Shown: one piece after another, positions 22,154-52,759 of the stretch | Numbering within the stretch: position 1 is the stretch's first letter | How the letters are laid out: the number at the start of each line of letters is the position of its first letter | Origin: Candidatus Limnocylindrales bacterium | GTDB lineage: Bacteria > Desulfobacterota > Binatia > UBA1149 > CAITLU01 | Assembly: GCA_035571835.1 (NCBI GenBank) | Contig: DATNBU010000011.1 | Location: 1-64,000 of the forward strand | Reading direction: 5' to 3' | DNA: 64,000 nucleotides | Position numbers and translations under genes: made by a program | The notes under the pieces: model-generated | What the model was told of the DNA's origin: nothing | The model's input: the letters and a program-made list of their open reading frames with translations, nothing else | The model's database searches: none

Positions 22154-22360
22154 TCAGTCGATCAGTTTGCCAAGGTGCTCGAGCAGCTCGGCGAGGCTCG
22201 TGAAGTGGTGGCGGCCGCTCGACGTGACCTCCTCCAGCTTGCCCCTGCACGTACCGGCACCGAGATCGGTGGTACGGTCGAAGCGCAGGACGAACGTCCG
22301 CTCCTGTGGATAGAGGGGACGCTGGAGTTTCTCGTCGTCGCTGCGGAAGCGCTCGGTCAT
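22154..22360 (-). CDS. small protein, first gene of the beta-helix operon
   Basis: 68 residues, no signal peptide or membrane helix. The sequence TFVLRFDRTTDLGAG, TCRGKLEEVTSSGRHHF and SLAELLEHLGKLI has the strand-strand-helix pattern of a small uncharacterised bacterial family in which an FxxxxELxxFL-like helix ends the protein. It ends 11 bases before the start of the 947-residue exported protein and faces the AAA/TPR regulator across a 168-base divergent promoter region, so it may be the regulatory or accessory member of that operon. Confidence 0.6.
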   Translation of the reverse strand: MTERFRSDDEKLQRPLYPQERTFVLRFDRTTDLGAGTCRGKLEEVTSSGRHHFTSLAELLEHLGKLID

Positions 22361-39091: not shown

Positions 39092-41788
39092 ATGAGACGA
39101 ATCCTGTCCGCAGTTGCCGGAGGTGTTCTGACGATTGTCCCGGTTACACGAGGCTACGCGCAATACGTCGCCGTTCCGAGCTTTCCCGCGGGATCGCCGA
39201 CGTTCTGCACGTGGCTCCAGGAGATCGATGTCGCGCCGGGCAGCGACGGCGGCTTCACTGTGGTCTGGGGAGAATTCAACAACACGCTCGGATCCTCGAA
39301 CGCGATCGTCACGCATCGCTTCTCTCGCGACGGCGTCGCCGAGGCTCCTCCCGTGCGGATCGATACCAGCGGCTGGGGACTTTACCCGACGATCACCGCG
39401 GACGCGGGAGGCGGTTTCATCGGCGCGTGGATGTACTCGCACGACGGCTCGCCGCGCGCGCTGTACTCGCGACGTTTGAGTGCAGCCGGCGTCGGCGTCG
39501 GTGGTGAAGGTCGCATCGACACGCTGAACACCGGTCCGATGATCGCGCATTCGGTCGCCTATCGCGATGCCGGGCCGGTTTATCTGTGGAAGCAGAACGG
39601 GCTGTTCATCCGCGCGTACGACAACTTCGGAAACGCGTTGTCGTCGGCGATCGCCGTTACGAGCAACTCGCCTTCGTTCGAGACCGGGATCGCAGCGCTC
39701 CCTGGTGGCGGCTTCATCGTGACGTGGAGCAACATGTGGATGACCGAGTGGAGCTGGGCGCGCATCTATAATGCGGATCTTACGCCGGCGACCGCCGAAT
39801 TTTCTGTCGATGTGCCCGGCCTCGTCGACAACGTCATCGCGAGCAGCACCGGTGAAATCACTTTCGTCGGGCACGCGTGGAACGATGGCGGGCCGGCGGG
39901 ATCTCACTCGGAAGCATGGTTCCGCAAATTTTCTTCCAGCGGATCACCGCTCGGCGACAGAGTGATCGCCAGAACCGCGCCCGACGGCTACTACCTCGAA
40001 GTAGACGCCGACTACGATTCGCGCGGCAATCTGCTGCTGGTCTGGACCGAATACGACACGACGAACGAGGTCTTCCTGCCGGCGCGCGCCCGTGCGTACG
40101 ACGCGTCGAATTCTCCGCTTGGCCCCGATTTCATCGTTGCCGACGCACGCGCCGATTCGATCCGTACGGCGGCGCTCAGCGACGGCTGCTTCGCGAACGC
40201 GTGGTACGGAAACGCAAGGGCGTACGCGAACGTCGTGTGCCTGTGCGGCGGCGAGAACAGCTCGTGCGGCGACGGCAACGTGGATGCGCAGTGCGAAGCG
40301 TGCGACGACGGCAACACGACCGACGGCGATGGCTGCGATTCCAACTGTACGTTACCGGCATGCGGCAATGGCGTGGTCTCGCCGGGAGAAGGCTGCGACG
40401 ACGGCAATCGTGCCGACAGCGATGGCTGCGATTCGAACTGCACGCCGACTGCGTGCGGCAACGGCGTGCGTGCCGGCGCTGAGCAGTGCGACGACGGCAA
40501 TCTGGTCGACGACGACGGTTGCGACGCGAACTGCCGTCCAAGCGGTTGCGGCAACGGGACGGCCGGCGCCGGCGAAGCGTGCGACGACGGTGATCAGGCG
40601 AGCGGCGACGGGTGCGATGCCAACTGCACGGTCTCGCGCTGCGGCAACGGAATCGCCGCCGGCGGCGAGGCCTGCGACGACGGAAACGAAACCTCCGGCG
40701 ACGGCTGCGACACCAACTGCACGCTTTCCGCGTGTGGAAACGGCATCGCGGTCGGCGAGGAAGAGTGCGACGACGCGAACCGCACGAGCGGCGACGGCTG
40801 CGACAAGAACTGCCTGATCGAGTTCTGCGGCAACGGCCGCCGCGAAGCGAACGAGCAGTGCGACAGCGGCGGTGCGCCCGAAGGCGAAGACGCCGGATGC
40901 AATCCGGATTGCACGCTGCGCGCCGTGCACGACAGTGTCGTATTCGCGGTCGATCCGATCGAGCTGTCGATCCCCGTCGGAAACTCTCCGTTCCCGTCGA
41001 ACGTCGTCGTGCAGGTTCAGAACGCGGACGTGACTCCCGAGCGCGAGTCGCCCGGACACACGATTCGCCTGACGGCGTCCGACGGGGATTGTCCGCCGGG
41101 AACCGCCGGCCAGCCGGATTTCGATCGCGGCGTGGCGGGCGTGCAGGATACGACCGTAGTCGAGGGAGGCGTGCCGTCGACTGCGATCGCGGAAGTCACG
41201 GTTTCACGCGACGCATTCACGCCGTTCGACCACAAGATCCCGACGCGCTGCACGCTGTGGTTCACAGCCGAGGAAGCGAGCGGCGCATCCGACGATCCGA
41301 CGCCCGACAACAACGTTGCGTCGGTGCATCTCGACGTGACCGACACCGATGACCCCGTGCACTCGGACGAAGACGAGTTCTTCATCGACAGCATGGACCC
41401 GATCACGATCAAGATTCCGAACGGGCAGACCGTCGTCACCAAACAGATCAAGCCGGTCGTGCGCCGGTCGCGCGATCTTCCGGACACCGCCGGCGATCTC
41501 GAGGTGACCGTGAGCGTGAGCGACGGCGACTGCCCGCCGGGGACCGTCGGCTACATCGACTTCGACAAGCGGCTTGCCGGGCATCAGTCGCGGATGATGC
41601 TGCGCCGCGGACGGCGTGCGAAAGGAACGCTCGGCCTCGTCGTTCGCGCGGAGGTGTTCGACAGTCCGAGCGACGAGTCTCCGCGGCGGTGCACGGCGCT
41701 GATCACGGCGAACGGGTATGGAGATTCGGATCCGTCGAACAACACCACGCGGCTGGTGATTGATGTGGTGGATCGGAACGATTTCTAG
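39092..41788 (+). CDS. exported protein with Myxococcus-type Cys-rich repeats and duplicated C-terminal domain
   Basis: 898 residues. A signal peptide (ILSAVAGGVLTIVPVTRGYA) precedes a propeller-like N-terminal region (about 30-385) with repeated GGGFIxxW-type blades. Then seven tandem Cys-rich repeats (about 390-610) of consensus CGNG....GEaCDDGN...GDGCDxNC, the myxo_disulf/DUF4215 type. The last 285 residues are two copies of a ~135-residue domain, each with ASDGDCPPGTxGxxDFD or VSDGDCPPGTVGYIDFD, a Cys in RCT, and a D(D)PTPDNNxAS/DSDPSNNTTRLV ending, an Ig-like pattern. Likely surface or secreted. GAGGGG ribosome site before ATG 39092. Confidence 0.85.
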   Translation: MRRILSAVAGGVLTIVPVTRGYAQYVAVPSFPAGSPTFCTWLQEIDVAPGSDGGFTVVWGEFNNTLGSSNAIVTHRFSRDGVAEAPPVRIDTSGWGLYPTITADAGGGFIGAWMYSHDGSPRALYSRRLSAAGVGVGGEGRIDTLNTGPMIAHSVAYRDAGPVYLWKQNGLFIRAYDNFGNALSSAIAVTSNSPSFETGIAALPGGGFIVTWSNMWMTEWSWARIYNADLTPATAEFSVDVPGLVDNVIASSTGEITFVGHAWNDGGPAGSHSEAWFRKFSSSGSPLGDRVIARTAPDGYYLEVDADYDSRGNLLLVWTEYDTTNEVFLPARARAYDASNSPLGPDFIVADARADSIRTAALSDGCFANAWYGNARAYANVVCLCGGENSSCGDGNVDAQCEACDDGNTTDGDGCDSNCTLPACGNGVVSPGEGCDDGNRADSDGCDSNCTPTACGNGVRAGAEQCDDGNLVDDDGCDANCRPSGCGNGTAGAGEACDDGDQASGDGCDANCTVSRCGNGIAAGGEACDDGNETSGDGCDTNCTLSACGNGIAVGEEECDDANRTSGDGCDKNCLIEFCGNGRREANEQCDSGGAPEGEDAGCNPDCTLRAVHDSVVFAVDPIELSIPVGNSPFPSNVVVQVQNADVTPERESPGHTIRLTASDGDCPPGTAGQPDFDRGVAGVQDTTVVEGGVPSTAIAEVTVSRDAFTPFDHKIPTRCTLWFTAEEASGASDDPTPDNNVASVHLDVTDTDDPVHSDEDEFFIDSMDPITIKIPNGQTVVTKQIKPVVRRSRDLPDTAGDLEVTVSVSDGDCPPGTVGYIDFDKRLAGHQSRMMLRRGRRAKGTLGLVVRAEVFDSPSDESPRRCTALITANGYGDSDPSNNTTRLVIDVVDRNDF

Positions 41789-43812: not shown

Positions 43813-43999
43813 ACGCGGCGACTATACGGGGAGGGGAGTGCGGAGCGAGGCGGCGCTTGATCCGCCTGGAATGGGGAAACGTTGCTCGGGAGGCGTCCTG
43901 GGCTATAACGCGCGGCTGCCGGGTTGGGGCCGCCCCGCTTCGGCGTTTCTCGTGGCTCTGTCGGATTCTGTCCGCCGGGCGCGAGTTGTCCTTCGGTAC

Positions 44000-44075
44000 G
44001 CTGACGTAGCTCAGTTGGTAGAGCAGCTGATTCGTAATCAGCAGGTCCCCGGTTCGAGTCCGGGCGTCAGCTCCA
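44000..44075 (+). tRNA. tRNA-Thr (anticodon CGT)
   Basis: Complete cloverleaf: acceptor GCTGACG (44000-44006) pairs with CGTCAGC (44065-44071); D-arm GCTCAGTTGGTAGAGC; anticodon stem GCTGA/TCAGC with loop TTCGTAA and anticodon CGT at 44033-44035; T-arm CCCGGTTCGAGTCCGGG. Discriminator T and an encoded CCA (44073-44075) complete it. Reads ACG threonine codons. Immediately downstream lies gene-free, atypical DNA and a restriction-modification cassette, making this tRNA a likely integration site. Confidence 0.97.
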
Positions 44076-44854
44076 TGAAAATCAAAGACTTAGCGCGCAT
44101 CCGCGGATCGCTTCGATTCCGGGGTTACGCTGGGGTTACGACGGGGCGCGGTTCGACTATCGCTCTATCGTGACATGGAGTTTTCCTTCCAGTCTCGCGG
44201 GACAATCGTTCGCATTGGGAACGTGCGGCACAGATCACGCGGAGTGGTGCGCCGTTTTTTACGGGTCGCGAAACTCGCGAAATACGTCGGCGGACGGACA
44301 CAACTCCGCATCGCAGCTCGCCGGGAGCGCCGAACCGGAAACCAGGTCGATTCACGAAACTGATCGACCGCCAAAACTGCCACGATTCATTCTCGTGGAG
44401 CGTCGTAATCGAGACAAAAATGACAGAATTTCGCGGTCGCGAGGGGAGGGGGCGCCAAATCTCTGCGAGAGTGACTTGGGGACCGGCGCTCACAGTCGTG
44501 CGAGTGTGCGCGCAGGTTTTGGGAGTGATTTCCCGTTAGCGCGGCGGTCCGGCCCGCAGTCTTTTGGGACTTTACGGAACCGGTAAAAAAGAGAGCTCGG
44601 GTCGCGTCGCTCTGCGGCTGCAACCGGATCGCGCTAGGAACATCGTAGACCGTTTCCCGAAGGCGCTCGGCACAAATCTGCACAGTGGCCGACGTTTCGA
44701 TGGCTGGGCGTCAGGGTTAGGTTCGGGCGCGCAGAGTGGGGCGATCCGCGCGCAGCCGTCGATGGCTGGTTGGCGGGAAGACCAGGTGATCGGCTAGAAG
44801 GACTCGTGTACGTGCCTGAGCCTGGAATCCATCGGCCGGCAGCGGGAATCTCCA
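44076..44854. other. gene-free stretch downstream of tRNA-Thr
   Basis: 779 bases with no convincing gene on either strand and a visibly more AT-rich composition than the rest of the window. Directly after the encoded CCA comes TGAAAATCAAAGACTTAG, the kind of sequence often seen at tRNA-embedded attachment sites. The 9-mer GGGGTTACG is repeated at 44121-44129 and 44132-44140. Short frames here look like noise; the stretch may be decayed integrase/island DNA and includes the promoter of the methyltransferase gene. Confidence 0.5.
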
Positions 44855-45955
44855 ATGGCGATGGGCAACAGGAGTTCAATGCTTCAACGCGGGACAGATG
44901 CGAGTCACTCCGAGAGCCCACCGGCCGCTCGCACTAAGACGGGCAGAGTTTCTCCGCGTTCAGGCGCTGTAGCGCGTGCCAGTAGCCAAAGGACCAAGGC
45001 TGCGCCTCGCGCTGCGGCCGACAAATCGGCGTGCGATGTCCGGGTCGAGCTTGGAGATGCCTACGATCTACTCGATACCCTCGATCCGAGCAGCATTGAT
45101 CTGCTCATTACGAGTCCGCCGTATTGGGGGCAGCGTAGTTACGGGGCAGACCACAATTGGTCTGTCTTGAGCGAATGGAAGTGCGCGGGTGGTCAGCCCG
45201 AGCAAGCACCTCCATACGACTGGTATCGCGGGGCGGGCGGGATACTCGGGCTAGAGCCGTTTCCTGATTGGTACGTTGCGCATCTAGTTGAGATCCTCGA
45301 CAAGTGTCGGTCGCGACTGAAATCTACGGCTAGCGTTTGGGTGAACATCGGGGATACCTATTTCGCTCGCTGGGCGAGTATTCGCGAGAACGGCCGCCAA
45401 GGGTTGGGAAACAATCCACGGACACGTCGTCGGACACCCATGGGCGACTATCGGCAAGAAAAACAGTTGCTGATGGTACCGGCGCGGTTCGCGATTGCGA
45501 TGCAGTCTCGTCGCTGGATTCTTCGTAATGACGTTATTTGGTTTAAGCCGAACGTGCCGCCTCGACCCGAGAAAGACAGACTTCGGCTATCGCACGAGCA
45601 TTTCTTCCATTTTGTCTTGCGCCCGAAACTGGGACGAGCTCGATATTTCTATGACTTGGCAGCCGTTGAGCCACGCGCCCATGATGTAGTCGAGGTCCCC
45701 GTTCGGCCTGGGCAGGACGGACATTCAGCGACGTTCCCTGAGGATCTCATCCGTCCACGTATTCTGAGCTCGTGTCCGCCGAATGGAGTTGTCCTCGATC
45801 CTTTTTGCGGGACGGGTCGAACTCTCGTCGTGGCCGCGGAAAGCGGGCGGCGAGCGATCGGCTTCGACGTTGCCAAACACTTCGTAAAAGCGGCGCGGGA
45901 ATCCATCGTCGCCAAAAAACCGAGTGCGAGAGTGCGAAATGCCCGTCGCCCCTAA
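44855..45955 (+). CDS. type II DNA methyltransferase (N4-cytosine/N6-adenine class, beta order)
   Basis: 366 residues. Catalytic motif IV TSPPYWGQRSYG near residue 87 comes before the AdoMet-binding motif I DPFCGTGRTLVVAAESGRRAIGFDV near 315, the circular order of beta-class amino-methyltransferases. TSPPY is the form usual for N4-cytosine enzymes (N6-adenine enzymes tend to DPPY). Further motifs: WVNIGDTYF, MVPARFAIAMQSRRWILRNDVIWFKPNVPP, LSHEHFFHFV. The ~60 N-terminal residues are Ser/Arg/Ala-rich and disordered, so an internal start is possible. It overlaps the restriction enzyme gene and should protect its recognition site. Confidence 0.92.
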   Translation: MAMGNRSSMLQRGTDASHSESPPAARTKTGRVSPRSGAVARASSQRTKAAPRAAADKSACDVRVELGDAYDLLDTLDPSSIDLLITSPPYWGQRSYGADHNWSVLSEWKCAGGQPEQAPPYDWYRGAGGILGLEPFPDWYVAHLVEILDKCRSRLKSTASVWVNIGDTYFARWASIRENGRQGLGNNPRTRRRTPMGDYRQEKQLLMVPARFAIAMQSRRWILRNDVIWFKPNVPPRPEKDRLRLSHEHFFHFVLRPKLGRARYFYDLAAVEPRAHDVVEVPVRPGQDGHSATFPEDLIRPRILSSCPPNGVVLDPFCGTGRTLVVAAESGRRAIGFDVAKHFVKAARESIVAKKPSARVRNARRP

Positions 45956-47087
45956 CCCGCGAGTTCCCAACAATGTCGTGGCTGAGTGGTTTGGCCGGCG
46001 AGTTTATCCGACGGTCGCGGCGACGCCGGAAGCACTTTCGGATCAACAAAACCGCCGGTGCCCTTTCCTCTCCGCAGCGATCGAATCGACTTGTGCCTGC
46101 GTCAAGGCGCCGCGGTCAGCGGGAGTGTGCACAATCAGCTCCACGAGCAATGGCACAAGGCAAGACTGGCTTGTCTGTCCTTACAGAGCACTTGACCCGA
46201 ATCTCGTCGAGAACGCCGTGCGTCGGCTTTTTGATATCTCTCCAGAAATGCGGGTGATGATCCGTCCGGCTACGACGCTAGCCCGCCGTGAGGTACGCGC
46301 GGAGCTACTCGACGCTTTGGCGCGCGGGGAAGCAGTATTTGTCTACATGCAGGACAAGCTCGGGGGAGAAGTCTCCTTAATCGCGAGTCCGGGATCGCCG
46401 GAGCTGTCGTTTGACGTGACCTTGGTAAACTTGGTGCCCGGGCCGATGGCCCCGACTGTCGGACAGTACGCAATTCTGGAAGTCCAGACGATGGATTTTC
46501 ATGGAAGCTACAGTCATGTCGTGAAAGACCTCGACGACGCTCTCCGGCTCCATGCCGAAGCGTTTCACCAGAATGTACGCGCGAATGTCGGATGGCTTTG
46601 CAAGAAAATTGAGGGACCGAATATCGCGAACGTCTTCAAGCGAACGCTCTATCAGATGCTTCTAAAGTTCCGGCTTGCCGGAAACGGTGCGTGCGCGGGT
46701 GCGGCCTTGGCGATTCCACAGGCGGTCTGGGATAGCTGGCAACGTCACCTGGGTGCGCCGGTACTCGTGCCCGTAGATGACGGCACTTTTCGACTCGTAC
46801 ATCCCACGTCTCCTGTAGAGCCACGCGCGTGGCTCTATATCTTCGACCTGGATACGTCGGGCGATACGAGTCCTGACCCAGTAGTTGTTACAAAGGTGAT
46901 CGGGACCGACGCGGATACGATGACGCATTACGCATTCAAAGCCGCCCCCGAAGCGATTCTTGCGGCGGGTGGTCCGGGTTCGATGGTGCTCGATGTCATT
47001 CGGGCACGTCTGGCTAACTGGTGGCCCGAACTCGGACCGCTTCGACGTGCACAACGTCTCTCTCCGAAGACAAGTCTTTCGGAATAG
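45939..47087 (+). CDS. NotI-family type II restriction endonuclease
   Basis: 382 residues from ATG 45939, overlapping the methyltransferase by 17 bases (GTG 45924 is an alternative). The N-terminus has the NotI-family layout: VAEWFGRRVYP, then a Cys cluster CPF.. STCACVKAP.. GVCTISS.. LVCPYR, matching the structural iron-sulfur-free Fe-Cys4 site of NotI. The nuclease core has Asp159 (SFDVTLVN) and Glu181-x-Gln183 (ILEVQTMDF), an EXQ variant of PD-(D/E)XK; as I recall, NotI uses Asp160, Glu182 and Gln184, nearly the same positions. Cleaves DNA at an unmethylated site; the site need not be GCGGCCGC. Part of an acquired restriction-modification cassette behind tRNA-Thr. Confidence 0.85.
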   Translation: MPVAPNPRVPNNVVAEWFGRRVYPTVAATPEALSDQQNRRCPFLSAAIESTCACVKAPRSAGVCTISSTSNGTRQDWLVCPYRALDPNLVENAVRRLFDISPEMRVMIRPATTLARREVRAELLDALARGEAVFVYMQDKLGGEVSLIASPGSPELSFDVTLVNLVPGPMAPTVGQYAILEVQTMDFHGSYSHVVKDLDDALRLHAEAFHQNVRANVGWLCKKIEGPNIANVFKRTLYQMLLKFRLAGNGACAGAALAIPQAVWDSWQRHLGAPVLVPVDDGTFRLVHPTSPVEPRAWLYIFDLDTSGDTSPDPVVVTKVIGTDADTMTHYAFKAAPEAILAAGGPGSMVLDVIRARLANWWPELGPLRRAQRLSPKTSLSE

Positions 47088-47369
47088 CTCGCGGGCTTTG
47101 GCAACTTGACCGTCGAATCGGCAGCGCGCTTCGCGGCCCGCGGCCGAGAGTCTCGATTCCTGCCTGCATCTGCGCACCGGCCGGACGACAGCTCGCGGAA
47201 ACGTTCCGACTCTCAGCTTCCCAACGTAGCCGGCTCTCGCCACGAGCGGCCTGTGAGCACAGTCACTGCATCGTTCCCGCGGCGCTAGTCACAGTGCGGA
47301 ACGGTCTCTATGAGACGCCATAGTCTCGAATTCCGACATTGGAGTCGAGCCGTGCTGCGGAGGAGATTT

Positions 47370-47897
47370 ATGCGATTCATACTGACGAAGGCCGGGATCC
47401 TGCTGCTCGCGGTCACGCTTTGTGGCTGGTCCGGCTGCGCCCAGGTGAAACACCATCCGGTCGACAGCTTCGATCAAGTCCAGGGCATCCCTTACTACCT
47501 TGGCTCTTGGTACCTGCTGCTCTACCCGGACGGCAAGGGCGCGGTGAAATCCTCGTTCCTGTACATGATGGATCCGCGGTTCAAGATGGAGGCGCGCCCG
47601 CGCGCGTGGTTCGCCTCGGTCGAATCGCTGCTCAAGCTCGACGGCGGCGTTCTCACGGCGACCGAGATGAAAGCGGATACCACCGCCGTTCCGTCGTTCA
47701 TTCTCAAAGCCGCCGAGAAGGCGGCCACGTCAATGGTCGCCAACGACGTCAGCGCCAGCCGCGGAGAAGAAACCGTGACCTCCGTTCCCGCGCCCAGTAT
47801 CTACCGGATCGACGTTCAAGCACCGTCGAACCCGGGCGACGCGACCATCGTGACGTTTGTCGGCGAGCAATCCGATTTCCTAGTCGAAGTCTACTGA
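47370..47897 (+). CDS. putative lipoprotein, first gene of a three-gene operon
   Basis: 175 residues from ATG 47370 with AGGAGA at 47361-47366. Signal peptide (LTKAGILLLAVTLCGWSGC) with the lipid-acceptor Cys23. The mature part (VQGIPYYLGSWYLLLYPDGKGAVKSSFLYMMDPRFKMEARP, SIYRIDVQAPSNPG, TIVTFVGEQSDFLVEVY) is beta-rich and unassigned; PxYYLPxxLL-type segments occur in other uncharacterised lipoproteins. Eleven bases before the second lipoprotein gene. A ~280-base gap separates it from the restriction enzyme gene, so it may lie outside the island. Confidence 0.7.
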   Translation: MRFILTKAGILLLAVTLCGWSGCAQVKHHPVDSFDQVQGIPYYLGSWYLLLYPDGKGAVKSSFLYMMDPRFKMEARPRAWFASVESLLKLDGGVLTATEMKADTTAVPSFILKAAEKAATSMVANDVSASRGEETVTSVPAPSIYRIDVQAPSNPGDATIVTFVGEQSDFLVEVY

Positions 47898-47908
47898 GGA
47901 GGAATTCG

Positions 47909-48988
47909 ATGCGAGTATCTATGAGCCTTCTCAGTCTTGGCATCTTCCTGTGTGGGTGCACTTGCGTTCGCGTGGAGCGGGTTTCCACCGACGCCTCTCG
48001 ACATTCCCATGGGCCAGTCGGCCAGCGCTTCGCACTTCCCGTCGTCGCATTCGTGGTCACGCCGACCGGCGAGGGTGGGATTTCGGTCGAACGTAGCGAT
48101 CTTCCGGATCCAGCCAACACTTTCGCGATCGACGGTGACGCCCTGTTCGCCGCCTACAGTTTGAACGTCGAGACGAAGAATGGAGTGCTGACGCAAGTAC
48201 GATGGAATCCCGATTCGACGGCGGTCCTCGGACAGACACTCGCCTCTGCCGGCGGTCTCGCCTCGGAGGCCATCAAGGCAAGCCGGACAGCAGAAGACTC
48301 GAAGGATTCGGCCATTGCAGCCGCGAAAATGGATGTGGTGGTGGCCCAGGCGGCGTACGACAAGACACTCAAGGAGTATGGATTGGGATCCAAGGAGGAG
48401 AAGGAAGCGAAAGTCGCGCTTGCGAAAGCTAAGGCCAAGCTCGCCCTGCTCACCGGCAACGATGCAACAGCCGTACTGAACGATTTGGCCAACGTATCGA
48501 ACGATGCTGCGGGTAAGGCGGCGCTCGACCGGTTCTCGAAAGCACCTGCACCGATGCTGCTCGTGCTTCACGTCGACAAGGACGGTCGTCCGAGTCTGAA
48601 ACCGGCAAGAACCGAAGCGGGCGATTTCCAGCTTCGCACGCCGATCGCCGGCACCAAACCGGCGGCAACGACCGATACTGCTGTCGTGGTTCCGACTGAC
48701 AAAGCCCGCATCACGATCAAAAAGCCTGCTTCTGGTGACTTCACTGCCGAGATCGAGCTGAGCGCGAAGGTCGCTGCCGCGACGACGCAGGATTTACGGG
48801 ACACGCAAACCGGCATTGAGCACACGGCGCGGGCAAAAGGGCTCGTCGTGAAAACCGGCGCCGCGGATCACTTGATCCTGACGCTCGACTCCGGGTTGCC
48901 GACCGGCGTCTACCAGTATCGTTTCAACGTGACGGCGACAGCGGGAGCTGCCCCTGTCTTACTCACCGTCACGTTGGACGTGAAGTAG
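47909..48988 (+). CDS. putative lipoprotein with coiled-coil segment
   Basis: 359 residues from ATG 47909, preceded by GAGGAGG. N-terminus MRVSMSLLSLGIFLCGCTC has a lipobox L-C-G-C (Cys17). Residues 95-205 are Ala/Lys-rich and helical (ASAGGLASEAIKASRTAEDSKDSAIAAAK.. AYDKTLKEYG.. AKVALAKAKAKLALLTG), a likely coiled coil or stalk; the C-terminal ~120 residues are beta-rich (RITIKKPASGDFTAEIEL.. TGVYQYRFNVTA). Similar layouts, in my memory, belong to uncharacterised outer-membrane lipoproteins. It overlaps the metalloprotease-like gene by one base (TAGTG). Confidence 0.7.
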   Translation: MRVSMSLLSLGIFLCGCTCVRVERVSTDASRHSHGPVGQRFALPVVAFVVTPTGEGGISVERSDLPDPANTFAIDGDALFAAYSLNVETKNGVLTQVRWNPDSTAVLGQTLASAGGLASEAIKASRTAEDSKDSAIAAAKMDVVVAQAAYDKTLKEYGLGSKEEKEAKVALAKAKAKLALLTGNDATAVLNDLANVSNDAAGKAALDRFSKAPAPMLLVLHVDKDGRPSLKPARTEAGDFQLRTPIAGTKPAATTDTAVVVPTDKARITIKKPASGDFTAEIELSAKVAAATTQDLRDTQTGIEHTARAKGLVVKTGAADHLILTLDSGLPTGVYQYRFNVTATAGAAPVLLTVTLDVK

Positions 48989-50436
48989 TGGCGAGGATCG
49001 AAGGCTACGTCGGTGCGCTGCGACCGACGTCGGTGCTTCCGAGTCTTCCTCTTCAGCTCGGGGGTATCCGGATCGAGGAAAGCCTCATGCGCGGAGCCAG
49101 CGATGGTGGAACGCGCCCGCTGAGGTTCGACCTCTCGTATTCGAATCTGGCGTCGGGAAACCGACCGAACAATGAACCGTCTGACATCCCGACGCTTCAA
49201 GCCTCGCTGACTTCGCTCTTTCCCGGTCAGCCGTCGTCGCGAAGCCGGCGACGGGTAGGATTGGTGCTCGCCGACACGTACACATACAGCAAGACGGTGC
49301 TGGGACTGATGTTCGACATCGCTCCCTTTGCCGGAGAGTTTTACAGGGAAGGCGCAGCAGTGTTCCTGGACTCGATTCGTTCGTGGCGAAAGAGTGAAGG
49401 ACCACAGGCGCAAGCAGACGAAATGGCTTTCACCGCCATTCACGAGCTCGGTCACTGCTTCAATCTCTGGCACGCAGAGAAGCCGGAGTATGCCCCGAAT
49501 TTCATGATGTCGAGCGGCAAGAAGGTCTTTGATCTGAATGCATGGAACTTTCATCCGGATCACGAGAGCTACCTGAGGCTCGCGGGCGGACACGACGATG
49601 TTTTGCCGTACGTGCTACCGGGCGGCACCCCGTTCGACACGCGTCCGGACGGCTGGGGCAAGGGAACATCTTCCTGGGGAGCCGTTGAAAACAATCCACG
49701 CGAGCCGGCAAAGAACGATCTGCGTCTTCATATCGCACTGGATCGTCAGGAGATGTGGTACTTCGAGCCGCTGGAACTGGATCTGCGCATTTCCGCGAAG
49801 CGAGGAGCCCGCGTGCGAAGAATTCCGGACCAGATAGATCCGGGCTACGAACGTCTGCGAATCTGGCTCGAGGAGCCGGACGGACGCCGATCGTATTATC
49901 GACCTCCCGTACGATACTGCTCGAACCCCGCGAAAGTCGTGGTCGCCCCGGGACGCGATTTTGTCCGCGATGTCACGCTGTTCGCGGGGGCAGCCGGCTA
50001 CACGTTCAAGACGCCCGGCATATATCGCATCCGGGCCAGCTACCGCGTCGGGCCGCGCGAGGTTCTCTGGTCGAACATCGAAACGTTGAACGTGAAACCG
50101 GCGCGGCCCGGCATGAAGGAGTACGAGAATGCGAGCGCGATCCTGAAATCTCCGCAGATGGCCCACATCCTTTTGTATCATCGGCCGCGCCGGCTACGGC
50201 TCGATGTCGTCAGACAGCTCGCCGAGGTCGCCAAACGCATCCCGGACAGGACATCTGCAGGTGCGGTCCGTTACGAATCCGCGCAATTGCTGTCACGAAT
50301 TCCTGCGTCTCGGCGGGGCGCCGCGACACGCCAGGTTCTGTCGGGTCTCGAAAGATCCATCCTCGACGGCGGGCACGGACGCTACCGGGAACAACATGCG
50401 CTCGAGTTGGTCGACACGCTGCGGAAATCGAAATGA
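48988..50436 (+). CDS. zinc metalloprotease-like protein with HExxHxxNxxH motif
   Basis: 482 residues from a GTG overlapping the previous stop. Residues 152-162 read HELGHCFNLWH, a metzincin-like zinc motif in which the usual Gly is replaced by Asn; upstream AFTAI and a possible Met-turn NFMMSSG follow. The region 240-370 is beta-rich (LRLHIALDRQEMWYFEPLELDLRIS.. GIYRIRASYRVG) like an Ig-type substrate- or partner-binding domain; the C-terminal ~90 residues are helical (VRQLAEVAKRIPDRTSAGAVRYESAQLLSRIP). No signal peptide or lipobox is visible, unlike its two operon partners, so it may act in the cytoplasm or be exported another way. Confidence 0.78.
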   Translation: MARIEGYVGALRPTSVLPSLPLQLGGIRIEESLMRGASDGGTRPLRFDLSYSNLASGNRPNNEPSDIPTLQASLTSLFPGQPSSRSRRRVGLVLADTYTYSKTVLGLMFDIAPFAGEFYREGAAVFLDSIRSWRKSEGPQAQADEMAFTAIHELGHCFNLWHAEKPEYAPNFMMSSGKKVFDLNAWNFHPDHESYLRLAGGHDDVLPYVLPGGTPFDTRPDGWGKGTSSWGAVENNPREPAKNDLRLHIALDRQEMWYFEPLELDLRISAKRGARVRRIPDQIDPGYERLRIWLEEPDGRRSYYRPPVRYCSNPAKVVVAPGRDFVRDVTLFAGAAGYTFKTPGIYRIRASYRVGPREVLWSNIETLNVKPARPGMKEYENASAILKSPQMAHILLYHRPRRLRLDVVRQLAEVAKRIPDRTSAGAVRYESAQLLSRIPASRRGAATRQVLSGLERSILDGGHGRYREQHALELVDTLRKSK

Positions 50437-50574
50437 GCCATGGCGACTCGATCGTCGCACGCCAACGCGTACTCGCCGATCACGCCGCCGTCCCGTTCGA
50501 TCGCGATAACGACTTCGTCCAATGACGAAACTCCGGGCAAGCGGGTCAGGGCTGACCTGTTCGCTTCCGGAACG

Positions 50575-51168
50575 TCAGTCCAAGTCGCCGAACAGTTCCT
50601 CGATCGACAACTCGACGCCGGCGACGACTCGCGAGATCAGGAAGCCGGCGCCAAACACCCGCGCCGCCCCAAAGCCCTCGCCGTCACGCGCGAAAATCGT
50701 AACCTCACAGCGGCGAGGATCGACAAGCCAGTACTCATCGACACCACAGCGCTCGTAGATTTTCTTTTTCTCGATTCGGTCGCGCCGTGCGGTTGACGGA
50801 GACAGCACCTCTATGACGAGGTCGGGGACGACGTCGATGAACCCCGTAGGCTTGGTCATCATTTCGTTCGTGCGCCTCGCGGCCGAAATGAAAGACACAT
50901 CCGGTTGGAGCGTATCGCCCGAAGGCAGATCGAAGCCGGCGCTCGACTCGAGGACCAGGCCGCCGGTCATCCTCGCGTATCGACCCAGGGCGAATACAAT
51001 TCGGGCCGCGACCACGCTGTGACCGATCCGGGCAGGCGGCGTCATGATGATCCGTCCGCCGAGGAGCTCGTAGCGGTTGATGTCGGAAGCCGGAAGCTCC
51101 TGGAGCCAATCCCAGAACTCGGCCTGCGTGAACTTCTCGTCCGATCGGAACGCGGTCTGCACCGACAT
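50575..51168 (-). CDS. Uma2 family endonuclease-like protein
   Basis: 197 residues from ATG 51168 with GGAGGGCC upstream. Uma2 (DUF820) PD-(D/E)XK fold: RYELLGGRIIMTPPARIGHSVVAARI, LQPDVSFIS (Asp), VPDLVIEVLSPSTARRDRIEKKKIYERCGVDEYWLVDPR (Glu and Lys cluster with YWLVDP). Such proteins are numerous in cyanobacteria and other genomes, often near mobile DNA, and are presumed nucleases of unknown target. Its position next to the restriction-modification region fits that habit. Confidence 0.9.
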   Translation of the reverse strand: MSVQTAFRSDEKFTQAEFWDWLQELPASDINRYELLGGRIIMTPPARIGHSVVAARIVFALGRYARMTGGLVLESSAGFDLPSGDTLQPDVSFISAARRTNEMMTKPTGFIDVVPDLVIEVLSPSTARRDRIEKKKIYERCGVDEYWLVDPRRCEVTIFARDGEGFGAARVFGAGFLISRVVAGVELSIEELFGDLD

Positions 51169-51379
51169 GGCCCTCCAAGCGTACCCCAACTCATTCTGCC
51201 GGGAAAAGTACTCTTTCGACTGCCGATGCTGCGACGACAGGGATGGAATGTTCCGTGTCGACCGTGACGGGCTCCGGAAACTACGGCTGACGGCGCGCCG
51301 CGCAAGCTGACCCTCAAGGCCGGATCCGATGCGGCAATTAACGTCGTTGCGTACGACCCCGCTCCGTCCTACGATCCCC

Positions 51380-51456
51380 TCTCCCTCCGCGACTGGCGAA
51401 CCCGTGGACTAACCACAAGGAAACGGAGGGCGATCGTCCCGCCGCTCGCCTGGGCA
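51380..51456 (+). promoter_or_regulatory. ZTP (pfl) riboswitch candidate upstream of glyA
   Basis: The sequence follows the ZTP/ZMP riboswitch core in order: GACTGGCGA (51391-51399), a hairpin GTGG-ACTAA-CCAC preceded by AACCC, a GGAGGGCGATCGTCCC hairpin region, and the highly conserved 3' segment CCGCTCGCCTGGGCA (51440-51455). GGCGA at 51395-51399 can pair with TCGCC at 51446-51450, closing the long-range stem. It is followed by AAAACG-TTCTCGA-CGTTT, a short hairpin near the ribosome site. ZTP riboswitches are known upstream of glyA, purH, fhs and folD; binding ZMP/ZTP at low 10-formyl-THF turns expression on. No other riboswitch class seen in the window. Confidence 0.85.
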
Positions 51457-51496
51457 ACTTCAAAAAAACGTTCTCGACGTTTGTCTGGAGGTTGCC

Positions 51497-52759
51497 ATGC
51501 AGGATTTCCGTCAGCTGCTTTCGAAGACCGATCCCGATGTTTACCGCGCGCTCGTCGGTGAGGAACAGCGCCAGCGTGAAGGCGTCGAGCTGATCCCGTC
51601 GGAGAACTACACGTACCCCGAAGTTCTCGCTGCGCTCGGCTCTGTCTTCACGAACAAGTACTCGGAAGGTTATCCCGGACGCCGCTACTACGGCGGCCAG
51701 ACCTATACCGACCAGATCGAAGAGCTCGCGCGCAGTCGTGCGAAACGCCTGTTTCGCGCCGAGCACGCGAACGTTCAGCCGCTTTCCGGGTCGCCGATGA
51801 ACCAGGCGATCTACTTCGCGTACCTGAAGCCGGGCGATACGGTGCTCGGCATGGACCTTTCCCACGGCGGGCATCTGACGCACGGAGCGCCGGTCTCGCA
51901 CATGGGAAAGATCTTCAACTTCGTGCGCTACAAGACGCGCGTGGACCAGCAGGGCGCGATCGATTTCGACGAGCTGCTGCGTGTCGCGAAAGAAACGCGT
52001 CCGAAAATCGTCCTGTGCGGCTACAGCTCGTACCCGCGCGACTACGACTATCGCGCGTTCAAGTCGGTCGCCGACGAGGTCGGTGCGATGACGATGGCCG
52101 ACATCGCACATATCGGAGGTCTCGTCGCCGCTGACGTCATGCGAAACCCGCTCGATGCGGGCTTCGATTTCGTGACGACGACGACGCACAAATCGCTGCG
52201 CGGACCGCGCGGCGGCATGATCCTGTGCCGCAAAGATCATGCGGCCACGATCGATTCGTCGGTATTCCCGGGCCTGCAGGGCGGGCCGCACATGAACAAC
52301 GTCGCTGCAGCGGCGATCACGTTCGAGAAAGCATTGCAGCCGGATTTCAAAGTCTACACGGAACAGATTCTGAGAAACGCAAAGACGCTGGCGGAAGTCT
52401 TTCTGCACGAGGGCGTCGAGCTGATTACCGGCGGCACCGACAACCATCTGCTCGTCATCGACACCATCGCGAGCTTCAACCTCGACGGCAGGCGCGCCGA
52501 GGAAGTACTCGACCGCATCGGCATCACGACGAACAAGCAGGTGATTCCCGACGATCCGCGCCCGCCGCTGCGGCCGAGCGGCGTCCGGCTCGGAACTCCT
52601 GCGTGCACGACGCGAGGCATGAAAGAGCCAGAGATGGAGAAGATCGCCGCCTGGATGATTGACGCGCTTCGCCACGCCGACTCGGAAACGCATCTCGATC
52701 GACTCGCCGGCGAAGTGAAGGCGCTCTGTTCGAGATATCCGGTACCGGGCCTGGAGTAG
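51497..52759 (+). CDS. glyA: serine hydroxymethyltransferase
   Basis: 420 residues, full length for SHMT. N-terminus includes ELIPSENYTYPEVLAALGSVFTNKYSEGYPGRRYYGG; DLSHGGHLTHGAPVSH (ring-stacking His); MADIAHIGGLVAA; the PLP lysine in TTTTHKSLRGPRGG (Lys232); and the C-terminal LRPSGVRLGTPACTTRG. Converts serine and tetrahydrofolate to glycine and 5,10-methylene-THF with PLP. ATG 51497 follows GGAGG, and a ZTP riboswitch candidate lies 40 bases upstream, so expression is likely tied to one-carbon shortage. Monocistronic. Confidence 0.97.
   Translation: MQDFRQLLSKTDPDVYRALVGEEQRQREGVELIPSENYTYPEVLAALGSVFTNKYSEGYPGRRYYGGQTYTDQIEELARSRAKRLFRAEHANVQPLSGSPMNQAIYFAYLKPGDTVLGMDLSHGGHLTHGAPVSHMGKIFNFVRYKTRVDQQGAIDFDELLRVAKETRPKIVLCGYSSYPRDYDYRAFKSVADEVGAMTMADIAHIGGLVAADVMRNPLDAGFDFVTTTTHKSLRGPRGGMILCRKDHAATIDSSVFPGLQGGPHMNNVAAAAITFEKALQPDFKVYTEQILRNAKTLAEVFLHEGVELITGGTDNHLLVIDTIASFNLDGRRAEEVLDRIGITTNKQVIPDDPRPPLRPSGVRLGTPACTTRGMKEPEMEKIAAWMIDALRHADSETHLDRLAGEVKALCSRYPVPGLE

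What the first reader, a model, noticed from the sequence alone, without database searches (positions are those of the whole stretch)
44855..47087. NotI-type restriction enzyme with overlapping TSPPY methyltransferase
The 382-residue partner of the methyltransferase has the rare NotI layout: an N-terminal Cys cluster and Asp159/Glu181-x-Gln183 at nearly NotI numbering. NotI-family enzymes are few and commonly target 8-bp GC-rich sites. The window itself contains GCGGCCGC (for example near 22209 and 42653), so if the specificity is the same, the host genome must be methylated.
Basis: partly seen in the sequence, partly recalled or inferred. Interest (0 to 1): 0.6.

Follow-up and report, generated by a model that had tools for sequence, protein, structure and literature searches.

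The report
NotI-family restriction-modification pair
This is a genuine but uncommon relative of the laboratory DNA-cutting enzyme NotI, sitting next to the enzyme that probably protects the cell's own DNA; it is mostly ordinary, except that its relatives pair with two unrelated kinds of protecting enzyme.

Summary
Window 45939-47087 (+) encodes a 382-aa protein matching NotI (PDB 3bvq/3c25) over 356 residues at E=1.3e-91 and 44% identity. The four cysteines, D159 and E181 are invariant in 25 clade members including the window; Q183 is kept in 24 of 25. The AlphaFold model (mean pLDDT 65) matches only NotI significantly in the PDB. Upstream, overlapping by 17 nt, lies a beta-class amino-methyltransferase with TSPPY (PF01555, E=8.5e-35), probably m4C. 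So this is a NotI-clade Type IIP R-M system: a new member of a known kind. The claimed specificity is not shown: NotI differs at 17 of 88 columns near-invariant in the clade, and GCGGCCGC is neither rare (1380 copies) nor clearly avoided in this genome. Wider finding: counting the window, 12 NotI-clade loci have this MTase directly upstream, 13 an unrelated C5-cytosine MTase in the same place, one is unreadable. The same MTase type also faces a shorter, divergent NotI-type enzyme in two viral contigs. Pfam's NotI model misses this protein and NotI itself.

The parts
44855..45955 (+). DNA methyltransferase, beta-class order (TSPPY motif IV before DPFCGTG motif I), 366 aa; predicted N4-cytosine type
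   Evidence: PF01555 E=8.5e-35; PADLOC MTase_II PDLC03309 E=4.2e-143; 54-65% identity to ten relatives lying upstream of NotI-clade REases. First ~60 residues are not conserved.
45939..47087 (+). NotI-family restriction endonuclease, 382 aa (alternative GTG start at 45924)
   Evidence: phmmer vs NotI 3bvq E=1.3e-91; Foldseek vs 3c25 E=2.2e-32, TMq 0.69
46059..46178 (+). Cys cluster C41, C54, C64, C80 (residues 41-80), metal-binding region by analogy with NotI
   Evidence: four Cys invariant in 25 of 25 clade members and NotI
46413..46487 (+). catalytic core D159 ... E181-V-Q183
   Evidence: D and E 25 of 25, Q 24 of 25 (one Arg) in alignment with NotI D160/E182/Q184
44000..44075 (+). tRNA-Thr (CGT) upstream; nucleotide homology to the same-genus genome G001 stops about 18 bp past it and resumes only near glyA (51368) on another contig

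Best explanation
A two-gene Type IIP restriction-modification system of the NotI clade. The upstream MTase methylates an exocyclic amino group, most likely cytosine N4, in a GC-rich palindrome and protects host DNA. The downstream REase, probably co-translated through the 17-nt overlap, uses a metal-bound Cys4 module to place DNA-reading elements and a D...ExQ PD-(D/E)xK-type site to cut the same sequence when unmethylated, so it restricts incoming DNA. Shown: homology, motifs, fold match, operon layout. Inferred: activity, m4C product, metal identity and recognition site.
For: NotI match E=1.3e-91 and profile match E=6.5e-111; only NotI is matched significantly by structure (4 chains at E<=0.001); key residues conserved; MTase family match, with plasmid MTases annotated beside XcyI/Cfr9I REases at about 32% identity (that M.Cfr9I makes m4C is recalled); 11 further NotI-clade loci with the same MTase upstream; present in 1 of 58 kin genomes, in a stretch without nucleotide homology to the same-genus genome, which fits horizontal gain.
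Against: No activity, methylation or expression data. No Pfam or NCBIfam family for the REase (PF12183 not matched) and no PADLOC model. No tRNA 3'-end repeat was found to mark an insertion. AlphaFold confidence is low (pLDDT 65; most of the Cys region under 50).
Confidence: 0.88

Rival explanations
1. A working NotI-clade system whose site is not GCGGCCGC: for example a 6-bp core such as CGGCCG, or another GC-rich palindrome. NotI itself would be the specialised outlier.
For: NotI has the longest end branch (2.57; median 0.32) and differs at 17 of 88 near-invariant columns, including S70 N71 G72, Q75 and Y82 beside the Cys cluster and D265, Q268. No specific GCGGCCGC depletion in five carrier genomes (observed/expected 0.73-0.93).
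Against: 71 of 88 near-invariant columns are shared with NotI, including the catalytic residues. DNA contacts of NotI were not available here, so the differences may not touch DNA. CGGCCG is not specifically depleted either (0.82-0.96). Most relatives were found through patterns that include QDWLVCPY, which biases towards that motif.
Confidence: 0.4
2. The MTase makes m6A rather than m4C, or acts on a site unrelated to the REase site.
For: PF01555 covers both m6A and m4C enzymes; NCBIfam CcrM (m6A) also scores 60 bits, far under its cut-off of 830.
Against: TSPPY is typical of m4C enzymes (recalled); plasmid relatives at about 32% include MTases next to XcyI/Cfr9I REases; C5-type cytosine MTases occupy the same slot in 13 clade loci, which suggests a cytosine in the site is what must be protected.
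Confidence: 0.1
3. The system is decayed or silent and protects nothing.
For: REase decay occurs in the clade: in L022 the REase match is split into two pieces about 1.5 kb apart while the MTase is whole.
Against: Both window genes are intact with all catalytic motifs.
Confidence: 0.06

Closest known systems
NotI restriction endonuclease (PDB 3bvq, 3c25)
   Same: Length, collinear sequence over 356 residues at 44% identity, Cys4 cluster, D...ExQ core, fold
   Different: 17 near-invariant clade residues differ in NotI; recognition site unproven; NotI's own MTase type could not be checked here
PGAP 'NotI family restriction endonuclease' of plasmids (Pfam PF12183; PADLOC PDLC03465 for its genome relatives)
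   Same: Remote homology between the NotI-clade profile and a profile of short-clade genome and viral members (hhalign E=2.6e-12, probability 97.6%), same motif order
   Different: About 300 aa; two inspected plasmids have a C5-cytosine MTase upstream; window protein and NotI do not match PF12183
XcyI/Cfr9I systems (m4C MTases, recalled)
   Same: MTase about 32% identical
   Different: Different REase family
EagI (C^GGCCG, said to be a shorter NotI relative of about 301 aa; all recalled)
   Same: Probably the same superfamily

Membership tests
NotI restriction endonucleases | Full-length sequence homology to NotI | tested here: met
   E=1.3e-91 over residues 16-371 of the 387-aa form
NotI restriction endonucleases | Cys4 metal module | tested here: met
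   Four Cys aligned with NotI C42/55/65/81, 25 of 25; metal binding itself not testable
NotI restriction endonucleases | D...ExQ active site | tested here: met
   D159, E181, Q183; that NotI has Q in place of K is in PMC4081073, passages seen
NotI restriction endonucleases | NotI fold | tested here: met
   Foldseek 3c25_B E=2.2e-32, TMq 0.69; the model has pLDDT 65
NotI restriction endonucleases | Cleaves GC^GGCCGC | not testable with these tools
   needs in vitro cleavage; site statistics uninformative
Pfam PF12183 'NotI' | HMM score above gathering cut-off | tested here: not met
   no hit for the window protein at E<=10, but NotI residues 12-367 do not hit either, so the model does not define the family
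Beta-class amino-MTase (N6_N4_Mtase) | Motif IV (TSPPY) before motif I (DPFxGTG), PF01555 | tested here: met
m4C methyltransferase | N4-methylcytosine product | not testable with these tools
   needs long-read methylation calling or a biochemical assay
Type II R-M system | MTase and REase genes adjacent | tested here: met
   MTase directly upstream in the window and in 10 of 22 genome contigs relatives with this MTase type, plus 11 of 22 with a C5-type MTase; 1 of 22 cut by the contig edge
Type II R-M system | MTase and REase act on the same site | not testable with these tools
   inferred from adjacency only

The most novel reading that the evidence does not exclude
The NotI superfamily is a natural partner-swapping set. 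One REase scaffold reading a GC-rich palindrome has been protected in evolution by two chemically different marks, m4C and m5C, through exchange of unrelated MTases in the same operon slot, and the same m4C-type MTase also serves a divergent, shorter NotI-type enzyme in the opposite orientation. The prevailing members, including this one, may have a specificity different from NotI.
Probability: 0.45. Interest if true: 0.55.

Novelty: new member of a known kind. Interest (0 to 1): 0.38.

Why it matters
NotI is a workhorse rare-cutter with few characterised relatives (recalled). These loci give about two dozen homologues from Pseudomonadota, Actinomycetota, Acidobacteriota, Planctomycetota and Myxococcota (as labelled) that the Pfam model misses in the three cases tried (window, L008, NotI). 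They are candidates for new long-site enzymes and a comparative set for how an 8-bp site is read. The alternative partner MTases make it testable whether one REase family tolerates protection by either m4C or m5C.

Tried and rejected
Site avoidance as a clue to specificity: GCGGCCGC density in the own genome (1380 in 5.46 Mb) resembles same-family genomes, none of which has the system (1300 in 4.5 Mb, 916 in 3.7 Mb, 2122 in 4.9 Mb, 1168 in 4.7 Mb). Markov observed/expected was 0.73-0.93 in five carriers, within the range of other GC palindromes. Uninformative.

Two independent C5 acquisitions: the REase tree asks for 2 changes of MTase type (0 of 200 bootstrap trees with 1), but the AU test does not reject one C5 clade (p=0.367), and the C5 MTases of the two REase clades are 52-59% identical to each other. 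At least one swap is supported; the number is open. NotI and L014 are long branches.

Natural MTase-REase fusion in L017 (one 714-aa frame): viewed with suspicion because an A7 run lies just before the junction and a length error there would split the frame; single MAG contig.

Island at tRNA-Thr: no exact 12-mer or longer repeat of the tRNA 3' end between 44.1 and 53 kb (repeat finder over 43950-52000), so no attachment site is claimed.

P0001 (L099 REase) alone against the NotI-clade profile was no better than shuffles (third of 501); hhalign with P0001 alone gave E=0.045. Kinship of the short clade rests on the profile-profile comparison and collinear motifs. No relatives of P0001 in plasmids or phages.

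Literature: nine searches, in the open PMC library only; I read the listings, and no listed title or abstract start was about NotI relatives or NotI's MTase; two searches returned 0 papers. The NotI structure paper (PMC2390919) and the DOI looked up for a NotI variant paper are not held, so NotI's DNA contacts were not consulted. Of PMC4081073 only passages were seen.

Full report
Observation. The REase (ATG 45939-47087, 382 aa; GTG 45924 gives 387 aa) overlaps the MTase (44855-45955) by 17 nt. The only PDB match is NotI, E=1.3e-91 over 356 residues; a profile of 19 clade members matches NotI at E=6.5e-111 and nothing else at E<=1. Identity to NotI is 44%. The four cysteines and D159/E181 are invariant in 25 clade members counting the window, Q183 in 24 of 25, each one position below NotI's number. 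The AlphaFold model has mean pLDDT 65 and its Cys region is poorly modelled; still, the four chains of 3c25/3bvq are the only PDB matches at E<=0.001.

Methyltransferase. PF01555 at E=8.5e-35 with TSPPY before DPFCGTG gives a beta-class amino-MTase. PADLOC's MTase_II model PDLC03309 fits at E=4.2e-143. Matches in plasmid records are all below 60% identity and include MTases beside XcyI/Cfr9I REases at about 32%; that those make m4C, and that TSPPY marks m4C, is recalled. m4C is therefore the likelier product but is not shown.

Rarity and context. In 58 genomes of the window's kin only its own has the REase. A profile search found 2 of 396 Actinomycetota and 1 of 398 Pseudomonadota genomes, each count including the seed genome (the phylum names are those of the seed loci's titles). 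A pattern-led scan of genome contigs (84,980 species) found 22 relatives; this is a lower bound, since patterns came from the window protein. None was found in 72,556 plasmid or 50,697 phage records; two were found in viral contigs. The MTase occurs in 1 of 395 genomes of the phylum at E<=1e-60, the window's own. The pair lies after tRNA-Thr (44000-44075); nucleotide homology to the same-genus genome G001 ends about 18 bp past the tRNA and resumes near glyA, 51368, on a different contig. This fits gain by transfer, but no attachment repeat was found, and none of the neighbours scanned between 42.3 and 52.8 kb is an integrase.

Specificity. The same site as NotI is plausible but untested. Of 88 columns near-invariant in the 25 clade members, NotI shares 71 and differs in 17, including S70 N71 G72, Q75 and Y82 beside the Cys cluster and D265 and Q268. 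The pattern scan was biased to QDWLVCPY, but L025 (found by profile) and L027 (found by other patterns) keep QDWL[VA]CPYR. NotI has the longest end branch in the tree. NotI's DNA contacts could not be consulted, so which differences matter is unknown. GCGGCCGC occurs 1380 times in the 5.46-Mb genome and is not specifically depleted; if it is the site, the genome carries a dense methylation mark and the enzyme is no rare cutter for its host.

Partner exchange. Of the 22 relatives, 10 have the window-type MTase directly upstream, 11 have an ORF with PCQ and ENV motifs in that place, and one (L005) begins at a contig edge. Ten of those eleven ORFs were scanned and all ten are PF00145 C5-cytosine MTases; L023 was not scanned by Pfam but aligns with them. 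Three later loci add one window-type (L027) and two with PCQ/ENV ORFs (L025, L028), which also align with the C5 set. With the window this makes 12 against 13; L003/L007 are near copies, and L021/L028 are close. On the REase tree (26 rows) the label is strongly clustered (2 changes; shuffled mean 8.1), but one clade for C5 is not rejected (p=0.367). At least one exchange of MTase class thus took place inside the clade.

Wider superfamily. A scan with the MTase found 14 viral loci, four of them at 62-67% identity. One of the four (L097) is the L027 contig. Two (L099, L096) carry, convergent to the MTase, a shorter protein (308 aa in L099; 52% identity between the two); in L099 it shows the same motif order CPF...C...GxC...C, ExQxxD and NVxKR as NotI. 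In the fourth (L098) no REase relative was found with 26 plus 5 queries, nor in the ten contigs with 28-42% identical MTases. Two genome relatives, L112 and L113, found in 2 of 396 Actinomycetota genomes, match PADLOC REase_II PDLC03465 at E=5.3e-63 and 7.8e-61; L113 has a C5-type MTase upstream; L112's upstream gene was not settled. The profile of L112, L113 and P0001 matches the NotI-clade profile at E=2.6e-12. L113 alone has no NotI match in the PDB by sequence. Plasmid relatives of L113 (24 records, 15 listed) are annotated 'NotI family restriction endonuclease' in 14 of the 15 listed; both inspected have a C5 MTase upstream and match PF12183. Neither the window protein nor NotI residues 12-367 match PF12183, so Pfam-based annotation overlooks the NotI clade proper.

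Precedent. REase families whose members use MTases of different classes are known: PspGI with an m4C enzyme and EcoRII with an m5C enzyme, both recalled and not checked. The exchange is therefore of a known kind, but I saw no report for NotI in the listings of the searches made.

Verdict. A real NotI-clade R-M pair and a new member of a known kind. The most interesting lead is the alternation of m4C-type and C5 partners and the possible difference in specificity between NotI and the rest of its clade.

Noticed in passing
L017:3948-6116: MTase and NotI-type REase read as one 714-aa frame; an A7 run just before the junction makes a length error there a likely cause.
   Followed up: partly
L022:5040-7557: REase match split into two pieces about 1.5 kb apart with a minus-strand ORF between them (perhaps a transposase; not scanned), MTase whole: a natural example of REase loss.
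   Followed up: partly
L096:5071-5898 and L099:5052-5975 (minus strand): Divergent, shorter NotI-type REases convergent to a window-type MTase in viral contigs.
   Followed up: partly
Pfam PF12183 (no window coordinates): The Pfam 'NotI' model does not match NotI residues 12-367 nor the two clade members tried (window, L008); it matches the shorter plasmid group.
   Followed up: yes
window 50575-51189 (-): Uma2-family putative endonuclease (PF05685, E=1.4e-34) about 3.5 kb downstream of the pair.
   Followed up: no
window 39092-41788 (+): 898-aa protein with DUF4215 Cys-rich repeats (PF13948), conserved in the same-genus genome at 63% identity.
   Followed up: no
L056-L065 (G061) and L086-L095 (G062): Strong depletion of other 6-mer palindromes, e.g. 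ACCGGT 3 observed against 64 expected in G061 and CAGCTG 8 against 51 in G062, hinting at other restriction pressures.
   Followed up: no
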